Positions 15,035-53,265 of a DNA stretch of 64,000 bases are shown here, one piece after another (positions within the stretch are counted from its first letter, which is position 1; the number at the start of each line of letters is the position of its first letter). Under the pieces are notes generated by a model. The model ran no database searches, had not been told where the DNA came from, and saw only the letters and a program-made list of their open reading frames with translations. Origin of the DNA: Legionella saoudiensis (GTDB taxonomy: Bacteria; Pseudomonadota; Gammaproteobacteria; Legionellales; Legionellaceae); NCBI RefSeq assembly GCF_001465875.1, contig NZ_LN901324.1:496001-560000 (forward strand), given 5' to 3'. Made by a program: the position numbers and the translations under genes.

Positions 15035-15069
15035 ACCTGGTTGCATTGCAACCAGGTTTTCTTTCTTTA
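15035..15069 (+). terminator. Intrinsic terminator of the accD-cvpA run
   Basis: ACCTGGTTGCA (15035-15045) and TGCAACCAGGT (15047-15057) are perfect inverted arms, followed by TTTTCTTTCTTT. The CCTGGTTGC stem recurs at 35139 and 36265, each time past a gene end. Confidence 0.88.
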
Positions 15070-15158: not shown

Positions 15159-16778
15159 ATGGCAGGATTAATTAATTTCTTATCTTTTCTCGCATTACTG
15201 GGAATTATTCCCGTTATTACACTATTCCTGCAATTTCTCTTAGTAGGCATACATGGATTAAAAAACCATTATTCAAAATGTAAAAATTATACTCCGCGGG
15301 TGGCAATTATTATTCCGGTGTGGAATGAAGAAGATGTAATTGCTTTCAGTATTGATAGTTTAATGAGCTTGAATTATCCCTATGAATGTTTACGGGTCTA
15401 TGCCATTGATGACGTCAGTACGGATAAAACGCCGCAAATTCTTGCAGCCAAAAGCCTGGAATATCCAAATCATGTATTTAACGTTCGACGCACAGAAAAA
15501 ATTGATTTTGGTAAAGCTGCCGTAGTTAATCATGGGTTAAAAACCATTTTAAACGACCCCTGGGCTGAAGCTATTATGATTATTGATGCAGATGTGATGT
15601 TTGAAAAAAATACATTGCTAAGAATGACACGGCATTTTGCCGATCCTAAAATAAGTGCGGTAACAGCCTACATCAAGGAAGGACAAAATCCAGGCAATAT
15701 AATAACCCGCAGTATCGGTTTTGAATATATAGTCTCCCAAGCAGCAACACGGCGCGCACAAAATGTTCTTGGTGTTATGGCGTGTTTAGCTGGAGGGGCG
15801 CAATTGCATACAAGAGCGAACATTGAGCAGTTAGGTGGTAAAGTTGATACGTCCACTTTAGTTGAAGATACTTATACAACATTTCAAACCCAACTGAATA
15901 ACAACAAGGTTCTTTTCGATGGAAATGCAATTGCCATTGCGGAGGAGCCTGGTGATATAAGCAGTTTATGGCGGCAACGCTTTCGTTGGGCAGAAGGAAA
16001 TATACAGATTATTCGAAAGTTTAAAAAAATATGGTTTCACCCCAAGGCTCCGGGAGGATTAGGAGGCATTTTCTTTGGCTTGATCTGGTTTAGCACGGTT
16101 TTAATGCCGATAATTATGATTGGCACATCCGTAGCACTCAATATTCTTTATTTTTTAAATAGTTCCTTATCTTGGCAGTTTTTCCGCATTTTTTCTTTAG
16201 TGAGCTTTACTTCTTATTTATTTACCACATTTTATAGTTTTTGCATTGATCCAAAAACTGCGAAACGAGTTTGGTTTGAAGGAATCATGTTCCCAGGGTT
16301 AATTTCTTTATTTAACATGCTGGTTGCTGTTTTTCCAGACCATATGACTTGGCTTATTCATCAATATGGCTCTTCAGAATTAACTTATCTTTATGATCAT
16401 TATTTTCTCCTTTGGGCTAATAGTTGGATTTCTTTGTGTATGTTTTTTGCCTGGATTACCTATCGGTTGGATAGGGCAAATGTTTCCCAAAAAATTACTA
16501 GTCCATTACTTTTATTAGTGGGTTATGGCCCCTTACTTTGTGTTATTACCTTAGCTGCGTATCTTATGCAATTCTTTCATCGTGAAATGAAATGGAATAA
16601 AACTATAAAAACTGGCAAAGTAGAGGCGAAAAAGAAGTCATTAACGCAAACCTATGATTTTAAAAAAATATTAGCGGCTGATCAGAAAGAAGAGCGTCGT
16701 TTATTTTATTATGAAGTATTACTACTTCTGATCTTAATTACTTTTTGTGTGTTACATCGATATTATGGATTCTCATGA
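15159..16778 (+). CDS. Membrane family-2 glycosyltransferase (PgaC/BcsA-like)
   Basis: A processive-type sugar transferase of the inner membrane, 539 residues. One N-terminal hydrophobic segment (about 8-30) precedes the GT-A domain. Several C-terminal segments (about 300-325, 340-360, 375-395, 425-445 and 450-475) follow, with a last one at about 520-535. Catalytic motifs are complete: DD at 84-85, DAD at 143-145, ED at 236-237 and QRFRW at 273-277. This set is the signature of poly-beta-linked polysaccharide synthases such as PgaC, IcaA and BcsA. Its stop overlaps the next gene by ATGA, so the TPR/outer-membrane protein is its partner. The sugar is not deducible. Confidence 0.9.
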   Translation: MAGLINFLSFLALLGIIPVITLFLQFLLVGIHGLKNHYSKCKNYTPRVAIIIPVWNEEDVIAFSIDSLMSLNYPYECLRVYAIDDVSTDKTPQILAAKSLEYPNHVFNVRRTEKIDFGKAAVVNHGLKTILNDPWAEAIMIIDADVMFEKNTLLRMTRHFADPKISAVTAYIKEGQNPGNIITRSIGFEYIVSQAATRRAQNVLGVMACLAGGAQLHTRANIEQLGGKVDTSTLVEDTYTTFQTQLNNNKVLFDGNAIAIAEEPGDISSLWRQRFRWAEGNIQIIRKFKKIWFHPKAPGGLGGIFFGLIWFSTVLMPIIMIGTSVALNILYFLNSSLSWQFFRIFSLVSFTSYLFTTFYSFCIDPKTAKRVWFEGIMFPGLISLFNMLVAVFPDHMTWLIHQYGSSELTYLYDHYFLLWANSWISLCMFFAWITYRLDRANVSQKITSPLLLLVGYGPLLCVITLAAYLMQFFHREMKWNKTIKTGKVEAKKKSLTQTYDFKKILAADQKEERRLFYYEVLLLLILITFCVLHRYYGFS

Positions 16779-19306
16779 ATATAACCTGGTCTAGAAACAG
16801 CTTAATACTCTTTCTGCTCAGTCAGACTTTTTTACTACGAGCAGAAAATGGACCCTCGGTATGTAATGCCAACCAGGGGCTTGCTTTATTAAACCAAGAA
16901 AATCCGCCTTTTGCACAAATTAAAAGCATCCTCACTGTTTGTGATAAAAGTAAGCCTAAAGATATTCAGGTTTTGCTTTTGCATGGCTTGCTCGCCAGAA
17001 AAGAGGGTATGAAAAATAATCAGTTTGCGGATGCTATTTTTTGGTTGACGCAGGCCAAAGCCGCTGCACCAGATACAAATGCTATTCCTGCACTAGAATT
17101 AGCGGTCACCTATGAATGGTCCAACCAACCTGATAATGCGCAGGTTATTTACGAACAAATTTTGACGAAAAATCCCACCTCTCGTCCTGCATTGCTAGGC
17201 CTGGCTCGAACAGCAACAGCAAATAATCATTTAGAGAATGCTCTAAAGATTTATAAAAAATTATTAAGCCAAAACCCTAAAGATGCAGATGCCTTAAATG
17301 GGATGGGACGTGTTATGATGGCTTATAAAGAATATGATGAGGCTACTTTTTATTTTAATCGGGTCTTAGCCCTGCAACCCAGTAATGCCGACGCGCAAAT
17401 TGGTATGAAGCAGGTTAAGGTATTGCAAGAGCAAGTGGCGAAAGTAGACTCTGCTATTGCTCCTATTTTTACCTGTGATCCTGCTCAAGGGCTAAAGCTA
17501 GTTAATCAATCTCCTCCTCAATTATTGCTGGTACAACAAATTCTCTTAAATTGTACACGTGAAAAAAATACTGATGCACAAGTATTATTATTGCAGGGCT
17601 TAAACGAGCGGGTGCAGAAAAGATATCCCCAAGCTATAGAATGGCTAAAGAAGGCTAAGGATGCAGCTCCAAAAGATAACCCAGTACCAGCATTGGAGCT
17701 GGCAGTAACCTATGAATGGACCCATTTTTATTTAACAGCAAAAAATATTTATGAAACACTTTTGGCTGTTCATCCAGATCTACGACCTGCTTTGCTTGGT
17801 AAAGCGCGAATTGATTTATGGCAAAAAAATAATATAGATGCCCAGCAAATCTATACTCGCTTGTTACAAAAAAATGCGAATGATGTGGATGCTTTAAATG
17901 GTTTAGCGCGTATTCATATGATAGAAAAAAATTATACTCAAGCGCGACAATACTTTGATAAAGTCTTGAGCTTGGAACCAGGAAACGCTGATGCCAAGAT
18001 CGGTTTGGAGCAGCTGAGCTTAAGTAAACCCGTCAGCCAGCCTTTGCCTAAAATTGCCCCAGTCAAACCTTCTCCTTGTAATACGGCTGAAGGGTTAATG
18101 TTAGTTAATGCCAAAAATCTTCGCGTGCAAGAGGTGCAACGTATTCTGAATTATTGCGATAAATTAAAGCCGCATGATTCTCAAGTAGCGTTACTGCATG
18201 GCTTATTAGCACGTTCACAAAAAAATTATCCAGAGGCTATACGTTGGTTGGCACGTGCCAAAAACGCTGCGCCAGCTAATGATTCAGTGCCAGCGCAGGA
18301 ATTGGCATTAACCTACGAATGGTCTTTGCAATTGAAAAAAGCGCAAGCAGAATATCAAGAGCTATTGGCTAAAAATCCCAAATCTCGCCCAGCATTACTA
18401 GGGTCGGCACGTGTGGAAGCAGCACAATACCATATTCACATTGCAGATTTAATTTATAATCAATTGCTGACCACCAACCCTAAAGATGTGGATGCCCTAA
18501 ATGGCATGGGGCGTTTGCAGATGACTAATAAAAAATTTAAACAGGCCCGCGCTTATTTTAATCAAGCTTTACAGTTTAGCCCTAAAAATAATGATTCATT
18601 AATGGGCTTAGAGCAACTTAATAATTCTACACGTTATATGGCCAGCTTTAATCAAGGACAGTATCGAGTTCTTAACAAACAAGCAAATAGTAGTGTGCTT
18701 TATGGTTATAGTGATATTAACGCAACGGACAGAGTTATTGGAATTGCCACCCATAACAGCCAACAATTGAATTTGGATTTGACGGTTGAGCCAACAATTT
18801 TGCCGAATAATAGTATTTTTCTTGCATACCAGCGCCAACTGCCAGGTAAATACGGTTGGGGAATTAGCTATGATTTCCGACAACATAACAACTTACCTAT
18901 TGAATCACGTGTGGGTGGGACGGGTAATGTTTATTTGCTTAACTCCTTACAATGGTTTGGAGGCTTTTGGGCGGGCTTTCCCTCGCCCTGGAATAATCAA
19001 CTGTACTTTTCAGGCTTAACCTACTATACCTCGCTTCCTTTTAACATCAGTGCAACCGGGTTTTGGGCTAACCAACAGATAGGGGGACAAACAGCAACCT
19101 ATACTGTTGATTTAAGCAAAGAATTAGCAAATTCAGCATTTTATGATCTCGGTGTTTCCTACAATACAACACAAAAATTTTGGGGGTATCATGGACGGAT
19201 TATTTGGCCCACTTTTAGACATCAAGCACTTGAGGGAGCTGTAGAGCATTACCAACTTAATAATATAACCATTTTCAGTGTGGGCTGGCGGGTGTATTGG
19301 GGTTAA
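16775..19306 (+). CDS. TPR protein with C-terminal outer-membrane barrel (YaiO/PgaA-like)
   Basis: About 843 residues. A signal-like hydrophobic start (9-22) is followed by three large homologous units of about 190 residues (roughly 30-215, 220-410 and 420-620). Each unit opens with a Cys and a QGL/EGL segment, then AVTYEW or ALTYEW, RPALLG and DALNG-led TPR pairs. The last ~215 residues are rich in aromatic alternating strands and end in WRVYWG, as expected for an outer-membrane barrel. TPR-plus-barrel is the architecture of PgaA and BcsC polysaccharide exporters. The ATG at 16775 overlaps the glycosyltransferase stop (ATGA) and is preferred over an upstream GTG. The export role is inferred from architecture and coupling. 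Confidence 0.8.
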   Translation: MNITWSRNSLILFLLSQTFLLRAENGPSVCNANQGLALLNQENPPFAQIKSILTVCDKSKPKDIQVLLLHGLLARKEGMKNNQFADAIFWLTQAKAAAPDTNAIPALELAVTYEWSNQPDNAQVIYEQILTKNPTSRPALLGLARTATANNHLENALKIYKKLLSQNPKDADALNGMGRVMMAYKEYDEATFYFNRVLALQPSNADAQIGMKQVKVLQEQVAKVDSAIAPIFTCDPAQGLKLVNQSPPQLLLVQQILLNCTREKNTDAQVLLLQGLNERVQKRYPQAIEWLKKAKDAAPKDNPVPALELAVTYEWTHFYLTAKNIYETLLAVHPDLRPALLGKARIDLWQKNNIDAQQIYTRLLQKNANDVDALNGLARIHMIEKNYTQARQYFDKVLSLEPGNADAKIGLEQLSLSKPVSQPLPKIAPVKPSPCNTAEGLMLVNAKNLRVQEVQRILNYCDKLKPHDSQVALLHGLLARSQKNYPEAIRWLARAKNAAPANDSVPAQELALTYEWSLQLKKAQAEYQELLAKNPKSRPALLGSARVEAAQYHIHIADLIYNQLLTTNPKDVDALNGMGRLQMTNKKFKQARAYFNQALQFSPKNNDSLMGLEQLNNSTRYMASFNQGQYRVLNKQANSSVLYGYSDINATDRVIGIATHNSQQLNLDLTVEPTILPNNSIFLAYQRQLPGKYGWGISYDFRQHNNLPIESRVGGTGNVYLLNSLQWFGGFWAGFPSPWNNQLYFSGLTYYTSLPFNISATGFWANQQIGGQTATYTVDLSKELANSAFYDLGVSYNTTQKFWGYHGRIIWPTFRHQALEGAVEHYQLNNITIFSVGWRVYWG

Positions 19307-19365
19307 TGGGCATCTTAACAAGGAATAAGCTAAACTGAAATTAGCATTGCAATGAGGGAAAAATA

Positions 19366-20331
19366 ATGAAAATTTTGCTTACAGGAGCAGGTGGTGCGGC
19401 TGCAATTAGTGTATGGAAAAGCCTTAACCTGGAGCATGAGCTTTTTATGGCCGACATTGATCCTTGTGCGGCGGGATTATATTTAGTTCCACCTGAACGC
19501 AGATTGATTATTCCTCGTGGCAATGCCCCGCAATTTCCATCTACCTTACTTCAAGAATGTCACAAACGACACATTGAATTACTTATTCCTACTGTAGATT
19601 TTGAACTAACTCATTTGGCATTACAAGAAAAACAATTTACAGAGCACGGTATTAAAATGCCACTTAGCTCCGTAGAAGCATTAGAACGCTGCCGTGACAA
19701 ATACTCGCTGTTAACTTATTGTCAAAGTACGGGTCATACCCCAGAATTTGTTCTGTACACACCGGAGCTTGATTTAGCCCAATGGCAATTTCCTTGCTTC
19801 GCCAAACCACGTTGTGGTGCGGGCTCAAATGGCGCGATGACAATTAATCGTGTAGAAGAGCTCAAGATGTTGCCTGATGATGGCAGTTATTTGCTCCAGG
19901 AATTGCTTCCTGGGGATGAGTATTCTGTAGATATCTATATTCATAGCACAGGCCAACCGGTAGCTGCTGTCCCGCGTTTACGTATGAAAATTGATTCAGG
20001 TATCGCCGTTGCTGCCCGAACTTGTATTAATCCGCAATTATCCATGATGGCCCTAGACATTGCTCAAAAGGCAGGAATTACTTATGTTGCTAACGTTCAA
20101 TTTAAAGCTGATGCAAATGGACAATTTAAGTTATTAGAAATTAATCCGCGTTTTCCTGGAACCTTACCCTTAACAGCGGCTGCCGGGATCGATATACCGC
20201 AATTATTAATTGACGATATATTAAAAAAACCTATGGCTAAAGATTTATTACCCTTTAAAGAGTTAATGGTTGTGCGTTACTGGGAGGAACAATTTATCAG
20301 CCCTGATGAATGGAGAGCATTATGTCCCTAA
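19366..20331 (+). CDS. ATP-grasp domain protein (carbamoyl-phosphate-synthase-like)
   Basis: A 321-residue soluble enzyme. The N-terminus (KILLTGAGGAAAISVWKSL) is a Rossmann-like pre-ATP-grasp domain. The ATP-grasp core has FAKPRCGAGSNGA, the LLQELLPGDEYSVDIY segment and the metal-binding ending LLEINPRFPGT. Such enzymes ligate a carboxylate to an amine or thiol through an acyl-phosphate. It has a strong ribosome site (GAGGGAAAAATA) and overlaps the next gene by 10 bases. It follows the TPR gene by 59 bases in the same direction. The substrate is unknown; ligation of a small molecule to a glycan or peptide would fit the neighbours but is speculation. Confidence 0.83.
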   Translation: MKILLTGAGGAAAISVWKSLNLEHELFMADIDPCAAGLYLVPPERRLIIPRGNAPQFPSTLLQECHKRHIELLIPTVDFELTHLALQEKQFTEHGIKMPLSSVEALERCRDKYSLLTYCQSTGHTPEFVLYTPELDLAQWQFPCFAKPRCGAGSNGAMTINRVEELKMLPDDGSYLLQELLPGDEYSVDIYIHSTGQPVAAVPRLRMKIDSGIAVAARTCINPQLSMMALDIAQKAGITYVANVQFKADANGQFKLLEINPRFPGTLPLTAAAGIDIPQLLIDDILKKPMAKDLLPFKELMVVRYWEEQFISPDEWRALCP

Positions 20332-20903
20332 GGTTATGGTTAATTAGACATGGAGAAAGCCATGTAAATGCTGGAGTCTGGCATGCTAATCCTAATGAAG
20401 CAGTTTTAACTGCGCTGGGTGAAGAACAGGCACAACAAGTAGCTGCAGAAATTAATGAAGCCCCAACGTTAATCATTACCTCACCCTTATCCCGCGCCCA
20501 ACAAAGCGCAGAGTACATTATGCAACGTTGGCCTCAATCACCAACGACTATTTGGCCTATCCAAGAAATAGTTTATTTATCTGCAGAAAAGATGGGACGA
20601 TTAAGTCCAAAAGAGCGAAAGCAGCGCGTTAATGAGTACTGGCAGAGAAGCGACCCTTTTTATTGTGATGGGGATAACGCTGAATCATTTGCTTCATTTT
20701 TACAGCGAGTCATTAGTTTTCATGAGCAAATAGTAAATCATCAGGGGTTACTCGTTGTGGTTGGTCATGGCCAGTTTTTTAAAGCATATCAATTAGGATT
20801 AACTCATGGGTTTAAAATCAGTTCAGACTGGATGCGCTTATTCCGGCAACAAGAGACGATGAATCCTATAAAGAACAGTGAATTATTGCGATTAGAGTTT
20901 TAG
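20322..20903 (+). CDS. Histidine phosphatase superfamily protein
   Basis: About 193 residues with the phosphoglycerate-mutase-like fold. The catalytic RHGES motif is near the N-terminus (LWLIRHGES), TSPLSRAQQSA follows, and the second catalytic His is in VVVGHGQFFKAY. These enzymes remove phosphate through a phospho-His intermediate. Two starts are possible; the ATG at 20322 has GGAGAG just upstream, while the ATG at 20310 would add four residues. It overlaps the ATP-grasp gene by 10 bases and is probably co-translated with it. The substrate is unknown. Confidence 0.85.
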   Translation: MSLRLWLIRHGESHVNAGVWHANPNEAVLTALGEEQAQQVAAEINEAPTLIITSPLSRAQQSAEYIMQRWPQSPTTIWPIQEIVYLSAEKMGRLSPKERKQRVNEYWQRSDPFYCDGDNAESFASFLQRVISFHEQIVNHQGLLVVVGHGQFFKAYQLGLTHGFKISSDWMRLFRQQETMNPIKNSELLRLEF

Positions 20904-21008
20904 GTACATGAGCAGGACAGCTCTTTTAATAAGTTATTCAAGATAAATTATTTTTTTCTCCTATACTTATCATATAACTGCTTAAAATTTTTGACATTTG
21001 AGTACGCT

Positions 21009-22001
21009 ATGGATAGACAACTTTATAAAATTTTACTTATAGAACCTGATCTTAGGGTTGCTCGTAGCATTTTAAATTGGTTACACAATAAAGCGGAAAT
21101 AACCCATGTATTAGATGCGGATGCCTGCAAAAGAAAAGTGATGCTTACTGATTGGGATCTGGTCATTACTGATATGAACTCCCCTGAAATGGATGATCTA
21201 GATATTACCATCATGGTAAAAAAAGCAAATCCAGAAACTTCCTTACTTATTGTTACAGAAGATAAAAAGGTAGATTTTATTATTTCTGCCATGCAAAACC
21301 ATGCTGATGGTTTATTTTTTAAGCCCTTGCAAGAACATGAGTTCGTCTCTAAAGCCTTAAATCTAGCAGAAGAATCAAGAAACAGACGTTCCAAAGGGAA
21401 AAAAATAGTACTCGCTATAGGGGCTCATCCTGATGACGTAGAGTTTGGTTGTGCGGGTACTTTAGCAAAGCATCGTGCCGATGGGGATTCACTCAATATT
21501 CTTACTTTAAGTATGGGAGAGGTTGGAGGGGATTCATTAACTCGAAGACAAGAATCCCAGAAAGCGGCTGAGATGCAAAATGCGCAATTATTTATGGGAA
21601 ATTTTATTGATACAGACATTACTCATTCATCCACTACCATTCAGTTTATTGAGAAAATAGTGGAAGAAGTACAACCTACACATATTTACACACACTCATT
21701 TCATGATAGTCATCAGGATCATCGCAGTACCTATCAAGCCACAATCACTGCATGTAGAAAAATCCCTAATTTATATTGTTACTTATCCCCATCAGGTACA
21801 GTAGATTTTAAGCCTAATGTATTTATTAATATTGATAAACTTATTGAGGTTAAATTGCTAGTCTTAGGCGCCTTTTCAAGCCAAATGAGTATTCGTCCTT
21901 ATTTAGAACCAGACTTGATTAAAGCAACTGCACGCTATTGGGGACGTTTTAGTAATTATCACCTGGTTGAACCCATGGAGGTTATTAAAGGACACTCCTA
22001 A
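21009..22001 (+). CDS. Response-regulator receiver fused to PIG-L/LmbE deacetylase
   Basis: A two-domain cytosolic protein of 330 residues. Residues about 5-122 form a receiver with phospho-acceptor Asp55, Thr83 and Lys105 in place; the acidic pair is reduced to Glu12 with Asp14. Residues about 130-325 are a PIG-L (LmbE) domain with the zinc motif HPDD (140-143) and HxDH (His235, Asp237, His238). PIG-L enzymes deacetylate N-acetylglucosamine-type substrates. The fusion suggests an enzyme switched by phosphorylation. No histidine kinase is adjacent. The ATG at 21009 is preferred over a TTG 18 bases upstream. It lies about 105 bases after the phosphatase gene. Confidence 0.88.
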   Translation: MDRQLYKILLIEPDLRVARSILNWLHNKAEITHVLDADACKRKVMLTDWDLVITDMNSPEMDDLDITIMVKKANPETSLLIVTEDKKVDFIISAMQNHADGLFFKPLQEHEFVSKALNLAEESRNRRSKGKKIVLAIGAHPDDVEFGCAGTLAKHRADGDSLNILTLSMGEVGGDSLTRRQESQKAAEMQNAQLFMGNFIDTDITHSSTTIQFIEKIVEEVQPTHIYTHSFHDSHQDHRSTYQATITACRKIPNLYCYLSPSGTVDFKPNVFINIDKLIEVKLLVLGAFSSQMSIRPYLEPDLIKATARYWGRFSNYHLVEPMEVIKGHS

Positions 22002-50643: not shown

Positions 50644-52272
50644 ATGGCATTGGCTGATAATGCTTCAATGGTGGCAGCAAAATTTGCAAGCTTATCTATA
50701 CCGCGACAAATTGGTTTATTAATCGGTTTGGCTGCGAGTGTTGCTATAGGTTTAGCAGTAGTTTTATGGTCTCGTGATCCTAATTATGTTCCTTTATATA
50801 CTCAAATGAATGCCCGGGACACGGCTGAAGTCGTATCGGCGCTTGAGCGCAATGGTATTGAATTTAAAATTGATAATAATAACAGTACCATTTTGATTCC
50901 ATCTGAGAAACTACAGGCTACGCGTCTGAAGCTGGCTGCAGAAGGTTTACCTCGCGATCCCGTTGGTTCAGAAGAGTTATTTACTAGCGGTAATGCATTT
51001 AATAGCAGTCAGTTCATGGAGGTTGCGCGCTATAAGCAGGCCTTGGAAGCGGAGTTGGCTCGAACTATTAGCAAGTTTAATGACATTAAAGCTGCACGTG
51101 TGCACTTAGCGATTCCACGTGAATCTGCTTTTGTACGCGATACACAGCAGCCCAGTGCTTCAGTTTTTATTGATGTTTACTCAGGACTTGAGCTCAAAAA
51201 GCAAACAATTGCTGCCATTGTTAATTTGGTTGCCTCCAGTATCCCTAATTTATCAGCTAGCCGTGTTACGGTTGTAGATCAAGATGGTCAATTACTCAAT
51301 GAAGGGGGCGGGCAGACTTTATTTACTGAGACGGAACGTTTCTTAGATTACAGACAGAACCTTGAGCGTCAATATGCACAAAAAATTCAAGATATTTTGA
51401 CCCCATTGTTAGGTTTTGGTCGTGTGCGCGCTAAAGTGTCTGCGGACATTGATTTTACCAGCTATGAACAAACTCAAGAGTTATTCAACCCAGAGCAATC
51501 CTCTTTGCGTAGTGAACAAACGCTGCAAGAGAAACGTAATTCGAATAGTGATGCGCAAGGCGTTCCTGGTTCATTATCTAATACACCGCAATCTAATCCG
51601 GCGCTTACGGGTAAAAATCCTAATGCCCCAGCAAATCAGCAGCAATCCTCGGAGGCGACACAAAATACTGATGTACGTACGCAAAGTACCAGGAACTTTG
51701 AACTGGATAAAACTATTAGTCACACTAGAAATCAACCGGGTTCGATTAAGCGTTTATCCGTGGCTGTGTTAGTAGATAATCCGGCAATAATGGATGAAAA
51801 AACTAAGAAAATGACGAAGAAAGTCCTATCTGCCAAAGAAATCGATCAAATCAAGTTGTTGGTGGCTGATGCGATTGGTTTAAATGCAAAACGTGGCGAT
51901 AGCTTGAACGTAATCAATAGTGATTTTGTGAAGCCAGATCCTATTGCTCCAATGCCGGAAGAACGCTTTTGGCAGAAAGAAATTTTCTGGTCTATAGTGA
52001 AACAAGTTGTTGGTGCGCTATTCATTCTGTCTATAATCTTTGGGGTTTTAAGACCAATGCTTAAAACCCTGGCAAGCAATAAGGGAGTAGGTGGAGATAT
52101 ACCTCTTCTTGAAGAGCAGCCAGAGACTCAAGGGGAATTACCTTTTGATGATGGAATTAATGTAGGCGACGCACATGATTATGAGTCACAACTAAATTTA
52201 TTACGCCAAGTTGTAGATAAAGAACCCAAGCGTGTTGCGCAGGTAGTTAAAACTTGGGTTGATCGAGGGTAA
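50644..52272 (+). CDS. fliF: FliF, flagellar MS-ring protein
   Basis: The inner-membrane ring on which the flagellum is built. It has 542 residues. One membrane helix lies near the N-terminus (about 21-42) and one near the C-terminus (about 446-464). The ring-building motif domains lie between (VVLWSRDPNYVPLYTQM, then LAIPRESAFVR). A Ser/Asn/Gln-rich insert (about 285-350) is the usual variable region. The last ~30 residues are the FliG-binding tail. It follows fliE by 53 bases and precedes fliG by 3. Confidence 0.97.
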   Translation: MALADNASMVAAKFASLSIPRQIGLLIGLAASVAIGLAVVLWSRDPNYVPLYTQMNARDTAEVVSALERNGIEFKIDNNNSTILIPSEKLQATRLKLAAEGLPRDPVGSEELFTSGNAFNSSQFMEVARYKQALEAELARTISKFNDIKAARVHLAIPRESAFVRDTQQPSASVFIDVYSGLELKKQTIAAIVNLVASSIPNLSASRVTVVDQDGQLLNEGGGQTLFTETERFLDYRQNLERQYAQKIQDILTPLLGFGRVRAKVSADIDFTSYEQTQELFNPEQSSLRSEQTLQEKRNSNSDAQGVPGSLSNTPQSNPALTGKNPNAPANQQQSSEATQNTDVRTQSTRNFELDKTISHTRNQPGSIKRLSVAVLVDNPAIMDEKTKKMTKKVLSAKEIDQIKLLVADAIGLNAKRGDSLNVINSDFVKPDPIAPMPEERFWQKEIFWSIVKQVVGALFILSIIFGVLRPMLKTLASNKGVGGDIPLLEEQPETQGELPFDDGINVGDAHDYESQLNLLRQVVDKEPKRVAQVVKTWVDRG

Positions 52273-52275
52273 GCG

Positions 52276-53265
52276 ATGGATGGAATAGAGCGTGCGGCCA
52301 TATTGCTACTAAGCATGGGCGAAAAAAATGCGGCAGAGGTTTTAAGACATTTGGAGCCAAGACAAGTACAGAAAGTTGGAATGGCGATGGCTGCGCTAAA
52401 TAATGTCAGTAAAACGAAAATGCAAAATGTTTTAGCTGATTTTACTAGCGCTATAGGTGATCAAACGAGTTTGGCTGTAGACACAGAACATTATTTAAGA
52501 ACCATCCTTATAGAAGCTTTAGGGCTGGAAAAAGCAACGCCATTCATTGATCGTATTCTGGTATCAGACAAAGACAGTGGCCTTAACCGTTTGAAGTGGT
52601 TGGATGGGCGGTTAATTGCCGATGTTATTCGTAACGAACATCCGCAAATTATCGCCACTATTTTAATTCATCTGGATAGTGAACAGGCCGCTGAGGTAGT
52701 CAGTTATTTCAGCGTAGAAAAGCGTTCAGAAGTTTTATTGCGTATGTGTAATATTGATACAGTAAAACCGGAGGCGATTAGTGAGCTTGGACAGGTAATT
52801 GAAAAACAACTTAGTGGTCAAAAAGTAAGTAAATCAGCTTCAGTTGGGGGGATCAAAAGTGTTGCTGATGTTATTAACTATTTTGATGGCGCGATGGAAG
52901 AAGAGGTCCTGGATAAAATTAAGGAGTGGGATTCTGATTTAAGTGAAAAAATTCGCGATAAAATGTTTGTATTTGAAAATTTAGTCGATATGGATGATCG
53001 CAGCGTGCAAACTTTATTACGTGATGTTTCCCAAGAATTATTGAAGTTAGCTTTAAAAGGTACCACCGAAATAACTAAAGAGAAAATATATTCTAACATG
53101 TCCAAAAGAGCTGCTGACCTATTGCGTGAAGATATTGAGCTTCAAGGTCCGGTCAAGGTCGTGGATGTAGAACGGGCACAGCGAGATATACTCACCATCG
53201 CCAAGAGTTTAGCTGAAGAAGGGAAGATTGCGTTAGGCTCTAAGGGTGGGGATGAAATGATTTAA
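52276..53265 (+). CDS. fliG: FliG, flagellar motor switch protein
   Basis: The rotor protein that contacts MotA. It has 329 residues. The N-terminal FliF-binding part begins ERAAILLLSMGEKNAAEVL. EHPQIIATILIHLD marks the middle domain. The C-terminal torque helix (MFVFENLVDMDDRSVQTLL) has its charged residues. GKIALGSKGGDEMI is a typical ending. Its ATG lies 3 bases after fliF. Confidence 0.97.
   Translation: MDGIERAAILLLSMGEKNAAEVLRHLEPRQVQKVGMAMAALNNVSKTKMQNVLADFTSAIGDQTSLAVDTEHYLRTILIEALGLEKATPFIDRILVSDKDSGLNRLKWLDGRLIADVIRNEHPQIIATILIHLDSEQAAEVVSYFSVEKRSEVLLRMCNIDTVKPEAISELGQVIEKQLSGQKVSKSASVGGIKSVADVINYFDGAMEEEVLDKIKEWDSDLSEKIRDKMFVFENLVDMDDRSVQTLLRDVSQELLKLALKGTTEITKEKIYSNMSKRAADLLREDIELQGPVKVVDVERAQRDILTIAKSLAEEGKIALGSKGGDEMI

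What the first reader, a model, noticed from the sequence alone, without database searches (positions are those of the whole stretch)
15159..22001. Possible undescribed surface-glycan cassette: GT2 synthase, TPR/barrel exporter, ATP-grasp ligase, phosphatase, receiver-deacetylase
Seen: five plus-strand genes after the cvpA terminator, with ATGA overlap between the first two and a 10-base overlap between genes three and four. Known: PgaC/BcsA-type synthases pair with TPR-barrel exporters (PgaA, BcsC), and poly-GlcNAc systems need a deacetylase (PgaB). Here the barrel protein has three internal repeats, the deacetylase is a cytosolic PIG-L fused to a receiver, and an ATP-grasp enzyme is added. 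Inference: a polysaccharide or glycoconjugate whose modification is controlled by phosphorylation. No PgaB, PgaD or BcsB homologue is visible.
Basis: partly seen in the sequence, partly recalled or inferred. Interest (0 to 1): 0.75.

Follow-up and report, generated by a model that had tools for sequence, protein, structure and literature searches.

The report
Hybrid surface-polysaccharide operon in Legionella
Five neighbouring genes in a Legionella genome travel together as a unit that very probably makes and exports a surface sugar polymer, using an unusual mix of parts from several known polymer systems plus three enzymes that seem to prepare an amino-sugar building block.

Summary
In detail: five intact plus-strand genes at 15159-22001, with both overlaps as described. 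In 45 same-genus genomes the first two genes occur in 7 and the last three in the same 7 plus one; in the exception the trio sits beside a different synthase and TPR-protein pair. So the genes keep company. Wider sampling changed the picture. Six relatives in three genera carry a seven-gene form with BcsB and a GH81 (endo-beta-1,3-glucanase) gene in front; the window's genome has no BcsB. The synthase lacks the hallmark motifs of bacterial beta-glucan synthases and scores best, far below cut-off, against the poly-GlcNAc synthase model. Deacetylase and phosphatase active sites are conserved, but the receiver has proline in place of an expected acidic residue in 11 of 12, so control by phosphorylation is doubtful. 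Best reading: a synthase-dependent surface-polymer cassette with a cytosolic deacetylate-and-reacylate trio. The sugar and the trio's substrate are unknown. The nearest named precedent for a PIG-L gene beside a GT2 and an outer-membrane barrel is E. coli yaiS-yaiP-yaiX-yaiO.

The parts
15035..15057 (+). terminator-like hairpin behind cvpA, upstream edge of the cassette
   Evidence: 10 pairs, T-rich tail; such sites are near the shuffled mean in the region
15159..16778 (+). gene 1, membrane GT2 glycosyltransferase (539 aa)
   Evidence: DD, DAD, ED and QRFRW invariant in 9 orthologues
16775..19306 (+). gene 2, TPR protein with C-terminal beta-barrel (843 aa from ATG 16775)
   Evidence: N-terminus looks like a signal peptide (by eye)
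16835..18640 (+). three TPR blocks of about 190 aa: 16835-17419, 17459-18034, 18059-18640 (approximate)
   Evidence: pairwise 46-51% identity
18614..19303 (+). C-terminal beta-barrel domain, 13 strands of eight or more residues in the model, aromatic residue next to last
   Evidence: mean pLDDT 77.4, pTM 0.49 for the 421-residue piece; no Pfam match in 11 of 11 orthologues up to E 10
19366..20331 (+). gene 3, ATP-grasp ligase (321 aa), PF15632 / PRK12767-like
   Evidence: K147, E258, N260 invariant in 12
20322..20903 (+). gene 4, histidine phosphatase branch 1 (193 aa from ATG 20322)
   Evidence: R9-H10-G11, R58, E82, H149 invariant in 8
21009..22001 (+). gene 5, receiver-PIG-L fusion (listed from TTG 20991)
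21033..21353 (+). receiver domain of gene 5, degenerate phosphorylation site
21411..21752 (+). PIG-L deacetylase domain of gene 5
   Evidence: H146, D148, D149, H241, D243, H244 invariant in 12

Best explanation
The locus is a synthase-dependent surface-polysaccharide cassette. Shown by sequence: a membrane GT2 with a complete processive-type active site, a TPR protein ending in a predicted beta-barrel, and three enzymes without visible export signals, which in the genus are found in the same genomes. Inferred: the GT2 polymerises a chain and passes it across the inner membrane; the TPR blocks hold it in the periplasm and the barrel passes or anchors it at the outer membrane. The three cytosolic enzymes work on a small precursor or primer: the phosphatase removes a phosphate, PIG-L de-N-acetylates an amino sugar, and the ATP-grasp enzyme puts another acyl group (an amino acid or similar) on the freed amine. 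The degenerate receiver is more likely a contact or dimerisation domain than a phospho-switch. The fuller form of the cassette adds BcsB as periplasmic partner and a GH81 enzyme where cellulose operons have BcsZ. For the polymer I favour an amino sugar (about 0.5) over a beta-1,3-glucan (about 0.35).
For: Co-occurrence in 45 same-genus genomes: genes 1 and 2 in 7, genes 3-5 in the same 7 plus G030. All 12 carriers of the receiver-PIG-L fusion among 140 family genomes also have the ATP-grasp and the phosphatase. In G013 and G020 the phosphatase, and in G025 the PIG-L gene, lies elsewhere in the genome but is kept. Pairwise identities of GT2 and barrel go together (r 0.99, 45 pairs; other gene pairs 0.62-0.85; G030 left out). 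Active-site residues invariant. GT2 scores best against PgaC_IcaA (114.3 bits; CelA 38 bits) and lacks KAG, QxPH/Q and FxVTxK at their places in 10 of 10. The one out-of-family best match that I read through fuses GT2 to GH18 and a polysaccharide deacetylase. E. coli has PIG-L, GT2, acetyltransferase and outer-membrane barrel side by side.
Against: No substrate, product or transcript is known. GH81 in the fuller form points to a beta-1,3-glucan, not an amino sugar. The barrel's fold was not identified and may be too narrow for export. In G030 the trio stands with another GT2 and TPR pair, so it is not tied to this synthase. Of 10 class genomes outside the genus with an ATP-grasp relative I looked at 4 neighbourhoods; PIG-L was nearby in 1, and the trio in none. 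The carriers are related, so co-occurrence counts are not independent.
Confidence: 0.5

Rival explanations
1. The core makes a beta-1,3-glucan (curdlan- or callose-like). GH81 trims it in the periplasm as BcsZ trims cellulose, BcsB guides it, and the trio adds a rare substituent or is only loosely linked.
For: BcsB and GH81 stand in front of GT2 in 6 genomes of three genera. GH81 members are endo-beta-1,3-glucanases (recalled).
Against: The GT2 lacks the motifs that PMC6821405 (passages) reports as fully conserved in bacterial beta-glucan synthases, while E. coli BcsA and three Legionella BcsA proteins have them. PIG-L makes little sense for a pure glucan. The window's own lineage has no BcsB or operon-type GH81.
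Confidence: 0.3
2. The trio is not a polymer enzyme set but makes a small glucosaminyl metabolite, as in mycothiol or bacillithiol synthesis (phosphatase, PIG-L deacetylase, ligase), and merely shares the operon.
For: The order of activities resembles mycothiol assembly (recalled). The best NCBIfam model of the PIG-L part is BshB1 (77.4 bits).
Against: Below the BshB1 cut-off of 182.5. No MshA/BshA-type glycosyltransferase among the cassette genes. In the genus the trio is found only where a GT2 and TPR-protein pair is present, adjacent in 6 of 8 carriers or with one gene displaced.
Confidence: 0.1
3. The receiver is a working phospho-switch that turns the deacetylase on and off.
For: A receiver domain is present in 12 of 12 fusion proteins; phospho-Asp in 11 of 12 and Lys in 11 of 12.
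Against: The second acidic residue, a magnesium ligand in ordinary receivers (recalled), is P in 11 and S in 1; the switch Thr is Ala in 4 of 12; G008 has Asn for the phospho-Asp (alignments to RstA, CtrA and PmrA).
Confidence: 0.12

Closest known systems
E. coli yaiS-yaiP-yaiX-yaiO cluster and plasmid copies
   Same: A PIG-L deacetylase (36% identical over 62% of the query) beside a PgaC-like GT2, an acylating enzyme and an outer-membrane barrel.
   Different: An acetyltransferase instead of ATP-grasp; no receiver, phosphatase or TPR blocks; the YaiO barrel shows no sequence kinship to this one.
PgaABCD / IcaADBC poly-GlcNAc systems
   Same: GT2 synthase scoring best against the PgaC model; TPR protein with a barrel.
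   Different: Far below the equivalog cut-offs; no CE4 deacetylase in the cassette; BcsB and GH81 in the fuller form.
Bcs cellulose synthase operon
   Same: BcsB, a glucanase and a TPR-barrel protein in the seven-gene form.
   Different: The synthase lacks BcsA motifs and PilZ; the glucanase is GH81, not GH8; the trio is added.
GH18-polysaccharide deacetylase-GT2 fusion proteins
   Same: Best GT2 match outside the family that I read through (G372).
   Different: The deacetylase is fused and of another family; no BcsB, ATP-grasp or receiver in that protein.
Mycothiol and bacillithiol synthesis
   Same: A PIG-L deacetylase with an amide-forming ligase; a phosphatase step in mycothiol (recalled).
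   Different: Below BshB cut-offs; the ligase family differs; no MshA/BshA in the cassette.

Membership tests
PgaABCD / Ica poly-GlcNAc system | PgaC_IcaA equivalog score | tested here: not met
   114.3 bits against a cut-off of 422.3
PgaABCD / Ica poly-GlcNAc system | PgaA equivalog score of the exporter | tested here: not met
   57 bits against 366.65
PgaABCD / Ica poly-GlcNAc system | CE4 (PF01522) deacetylase in the locus | tested here: not met
   five matches in the genome, all outside the window
[quoted passage not shown]
   KAG and FxVTxK absent in 10 of 10; QxPH/Q only as two strings in N-terminal extensions; present in four BcsA controls. E. coli PgaC also has a QxPH string, place not checked
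Bcs cellulose synthase | PilZ domain on the synthase | tested here: not met
   no PilZ match for the window or G008 GT2
Bcs cellulose synthase | BcsB subunit | tested here: not met
   none in the window's genome; present in 6 relatives of the cassette
Bcs cellulose synthase | BcsC equivalog score of the exporter | tested here: not met
   64.6 bits against 858
E. coli yai-type cluster | PIG-L gene next to a GT2 and an outer-membrane barrel | tested here: met
   in the window PIG-L is three genes away from the barrel gene
E. coli yai-type cluster | YaiO barrel (TIGR04390) | tested here: not met
   no match up to E 1; profile comparison E 0.12
Bacillithiol deacetylase BshB | BshB1 equivalog score | tested here: not met
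   77.4 bits against 182.5
Phosphorylatable receiver | acidic pair, phospho-Asp, switch Thr/Ser and Lys | tested here: not met
   second acid is P in 11 of 12; others partly kept
Outer-membrane polysaccharide exporter | barrel of exporter fold wide enough for a glycan | tested here: inconclusive
   13 strands in a middling model; structure searches listed only TPR-type matches
Synthase-dependent polysaccharide system | a polymer lost when the GT2 is removed | not testable with these tools
   needs an experiment

The most novel reading that the evidence does not exclude
An unnamed class of exopolysaccharide system, found in full here only in Legionellaceae genomes, in which a PgaC-like synthase works with a BcsB-type partner and a GH81 enzyme, and a dedicated cytosolic phosphatase, PIG-L and ATP-grasp route supplies an N-aminoacylated (or otherwise re-acylated) hexosamine, giving a polymer or cap of a chemistry not known to me from synthase-dependent systems.
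Probability: 0.2. Interest if true: 0.8.

Novelty: new variant of a known kind. Interest (0 to 1): 0.5.

Why it matters
The cassette mixes parts of poly-GlcNAc, cellulose and E. coli yai-type loci, sits at different genomic sites, appears to have passed between genera, and pairs a polymer synthase with amide-forming enzymes. If the reading is right it would add a new chemistry to synthase-dependent polysaccharides, give a first handle on non-LPS surface glycans of these bacteria, and suggest a use for the E. coli yai genes, for which my two searches listed no functional study.

Tried and rejected
Phospho-control by the receiver: weakened. Plain Pga or Bcs membership: rejected on cut-offs and motifs. 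YaiO kinship of the barrel: no signal. Barrel by sequence against PDB: the best rows are fluorescent proteins from E 0.09 up, read as chance. Fold searches with the TPR-barrel model: the rows shown are TPR-type matches, so the barrel was barely tested and a known exporter fold is not excluded. GT2 structure: model too poor to use (mean pLDDT 49.8). Foreign base composition: cassette G+C 0.35-0.42 against 0.36-0.45 in the flanks, no contrast. ATP-grasp relatives in the class: 10 genomes besides the window's own; I fetched 4 neighbourhoods, PIG-L nearby in 1, phosphatase-plus-PIG-L trio in none. GH81 and GT2 relatives on plasmids gave no similar operon name; their neighbourhoods were not opened. 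An empty cvpA-nadD site in a relative was not looked for (genome searches spent, 12 of 12). GT2 tree: 8 of 17 inner forks open, long-branch warnings, no outgroup; it shows only that the BcsA rows part from the other 16. Class scans score at most 3-6 candidates a genome, so misses are possible. Literature: ten searches listed no description of this cassette; passages seen only in PMC6821405, PMC7112194 and PMC12239567; all others seen as listing and abstract start.

Rows dropped before counts: G002 (25% hit to a TPR part); G033 and six other family hits with PIG-L or receiver only; GT2 hits of low identity or partial length.

Full report
WHAT IS THERE. The five plus-strand genes at 15159-22001 are intact. 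Gene 1 ends at 16778 and gene 2 starts at 16775 (ATGA); genes 3 and 4 share ten bases, 20322-20331. Gene 5 probably starts at 21009, where its orthologues begin. The unit lies between a terminator-like hairpin behind cvpA (15035-15057) and a converging gene that I read as nadD (recalled from its sequence). Domains are GT2, TPR, ATP-grasp, histidine phosphatase, and receiver plus PIG-L. The three repeats of gene 2 are 46-51% identical.

WHOSE GENOME. The same-genus genome G023 has a contig of 247,880 bases, the length of the Legionella shakespearei record found with the ATP-grasp protein. I therefore take the genus as Legionella; this is inference.

DO THE GENES KEEP COMPANY? In 45 same-genus genomes, full-length GT2 orthologues (48% identity or more) are in 7 and the TPR-barrel protein in the same 7; ATP-grasp, phosphatase and receiver-PIG-L are in those 7 plus G030. 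In G030 the trio lies beside another GT2 (27% identical over 256 residues) and another TPR protein. Relatives of that pair in G015 and G018 have no trio beside them, nor trio genes elsewhere at the limits used. In G013 and G020 the phosphatase, and in G025 the PIG-L gene, sits elsewhere in the genome but is kept. Carriers are related, so these are not independent events. Among 140 family genomes, drawn evenly, the receiver-PIG-L fusion is in 12, and all 12 have ATP-grasp and phosphatase. GT2 of this type is seen in 10 of the 12; G140's contig ends inside the barrel gene; the last is G030. In 369 genomes of the class only the window's own had the fusion (at most 5 candidates a genome were scored; the one other hit, G358, has no receiver part in the match). 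Whether ATP-grasp or GT2 relatives stand alone in other genera of the family was not searched.

THE FULLER FORM. In G008, G023, G031, G102, G120 and G133 two more genes precede GT2: a BcsB and a two-domain GH81 enzyme. Pfam gives BcsB at 2.4e-51 (G008) and 1.8e-46 (G023), and GH81C at 1.6e-71 and 2.6e-65. G031 is supported by genome searches (3.6e-40 and 3.6e-73). G102, G120 and G133 rest on BLAST to the G008 proteins; their BcsB genes were seen only in part, at the ends of my stretches. The window's genome has no BcsB and one longer GH81 gene elsewhere (open frame 1009 aa). The cassettes lie in different neighbourhoods in most carriers. G023 and G102, of different genera, are sisters in the barrel, ATP-grasp, phosphatase, PIG-L and GH81 trees (support 0.98-1.0) and weakly so in the GT2 tree (0.72). 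Passage between genera is my inference; no species tree was made.

THE SYNTHASE. DD, DAD, ED and QRFRW are invariant in 9 orthologues. The best NCBIfam model is PgaC_IcaA (114.3 bits in the window, 145.2 in G008; cut-off 422.3); CelA gives 38 and 66 bits. PMC6821405 (passages) reports KAG, QxPH/Q and FxVTxK as fully conserved in bacterial beta-glucan synthases. KAG and FxVTxK are absent from all 10 cassette GT2s, and QxPH/Q occurs only as two strings in N-terminal extensions; E. coli BcsA and three Legionella BcsA proteins have all three. E. coli PgaC, which is no glucan synthase, also has a QxPH string. In a tree of 20 rows the four BcsA rows part from the other 16 with support 100/100; without an outgroup, and with long-branch warnings, this says only that the cassette GT2 is not a BcsA. 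Outside the family the three best matches have open frames of 1146-1175 aa; the one I read through has GH18, polysaccharide-deacetylase and GT2 domains. This favours an amino-sugar polymer. GH81 in the fuller form favours a beta-1,3-glucan. I cannot reconcile the two and give 0.5 to 0.35.

THE OUTER-MEMBRANE PROTEIN. The model of its last 421 residues shows TPR helices, then 13 strands of eight or more residues (mean pLDDT 77.4, pTM 0.49). The window protein has a tryptophan next to last. No Pfam family matches any of 11 barrel domains up to E 10. Fold searches returned TPR-type matches only in the rows shown, so the barrel's fold class is untested. G120 and G133 have longer versions of the protein, 1038 and 1034 aa.

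THE TRIO. PIG-L residues H146, D148, D149, H241, D243 and H244 are invariant in 12; phosphatase R9-H10-G11, R58, E82 and H149 in 8; ATP-grasp K147, E258 and N260 in 12. Their roles are recalled. The receiver has E-P where ordinary receivers have two acids (11 of 12; G-S in G030), Asn for the phospho-Asp in G008, Arg for the Lys in G030, and Ala for the switch Thr in 4 of 12. Genes 3-5 show no export signal by eye, so they should act on cytosolic precursors. In one class genome, G235, an ATP-grasp relative and a PIG-L lie 3.5 kb apart in a sugar-biosynthesis cluster; in the three other ATP-grasp neighbourhoods that I opened no PIG-L relative was found. That PIG-L and ATP-grasp together swap the acyl group of an amino sugar is inference.

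PRECEDENT. The best-placed PIG-L matches on plasmids (36% identity over 62% of the query) are E. coli genes; in two of three records opened they lie with a GT2, an acetyltransferase and a YaiO barrel, and in the third with the last two (that gene table is incomplete). The GT2 of the first scores best against PgaC_IcaA. The K-12 chromosome has yaiS, yaiP, yaiX (annotated as a fragment interrupted by IS2) and yaiO. This is the nearest named arrangement; the barrel and the acylating enzyme differ.

VERDICT. A real, co-inherited variant of synthase-dependent polysaccharide loci. Ten searches of one open-access library listed no description of it; absence from print elsewhere is not shown. Product, substrates and expression are open.

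Noticed in passing
L125:4070-8617 (E. coli K-12) and L122:6992-10189 (plasmid): yaiS-yaiP-yaiX-yaiO: PIG-L, GT2, acyltransferase and outer-membrane barrel side by side, also on E. coli plasmids near integrase or transposase genes.
   Followed up: partly
G-handle genomes of the genus, e.g. L128, L129, L130: 20 of 45 same-genus genomes have a strong canonical BcsB (E below 1e-180); in the three loci opened a BcsA with the usual motifs lies beside it.
   Followed up: partly
L058, L059, L065 (G010, G044, G006): Distant BcsB-like proteins beside another large membrane protein whose start looks NfrB-like (recalled) and, in L059 and L065, epimerase-like genes.
   Followed up: no
L035:9177-13273 (G030), L062:8599-12534 (G015), L064:8391-12326 (G018): A second GT2 and TPR-protein pair in the genus (54% and 31-32% identical to G030), with the trio only in G030.
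   Followed up: partly
L061:7528-9936 (G038): A GH81 protein 36% identical to the operon type of G008, standing without BcsB or GT2 relatives in the stretch.
   Followed up: no
G000:C10:1678575-1679648: The window's genome has one GH81 match in a longer open frame (1009 aa) away from the cassette; similar ones occur in other same-genus genomes.
   Followed up: no
L117:4228-14608 (G235): A sugar-biosynthesis cluster with ATP-grasp, a His_biosynth-domain protein and PIG-L together; neighbours look like nonulosonic-acid genes (recalled).
   Followed up: no
window 50644-53265: fliF and fliG (flagellar) genes, ordinary.
   Followed up: no
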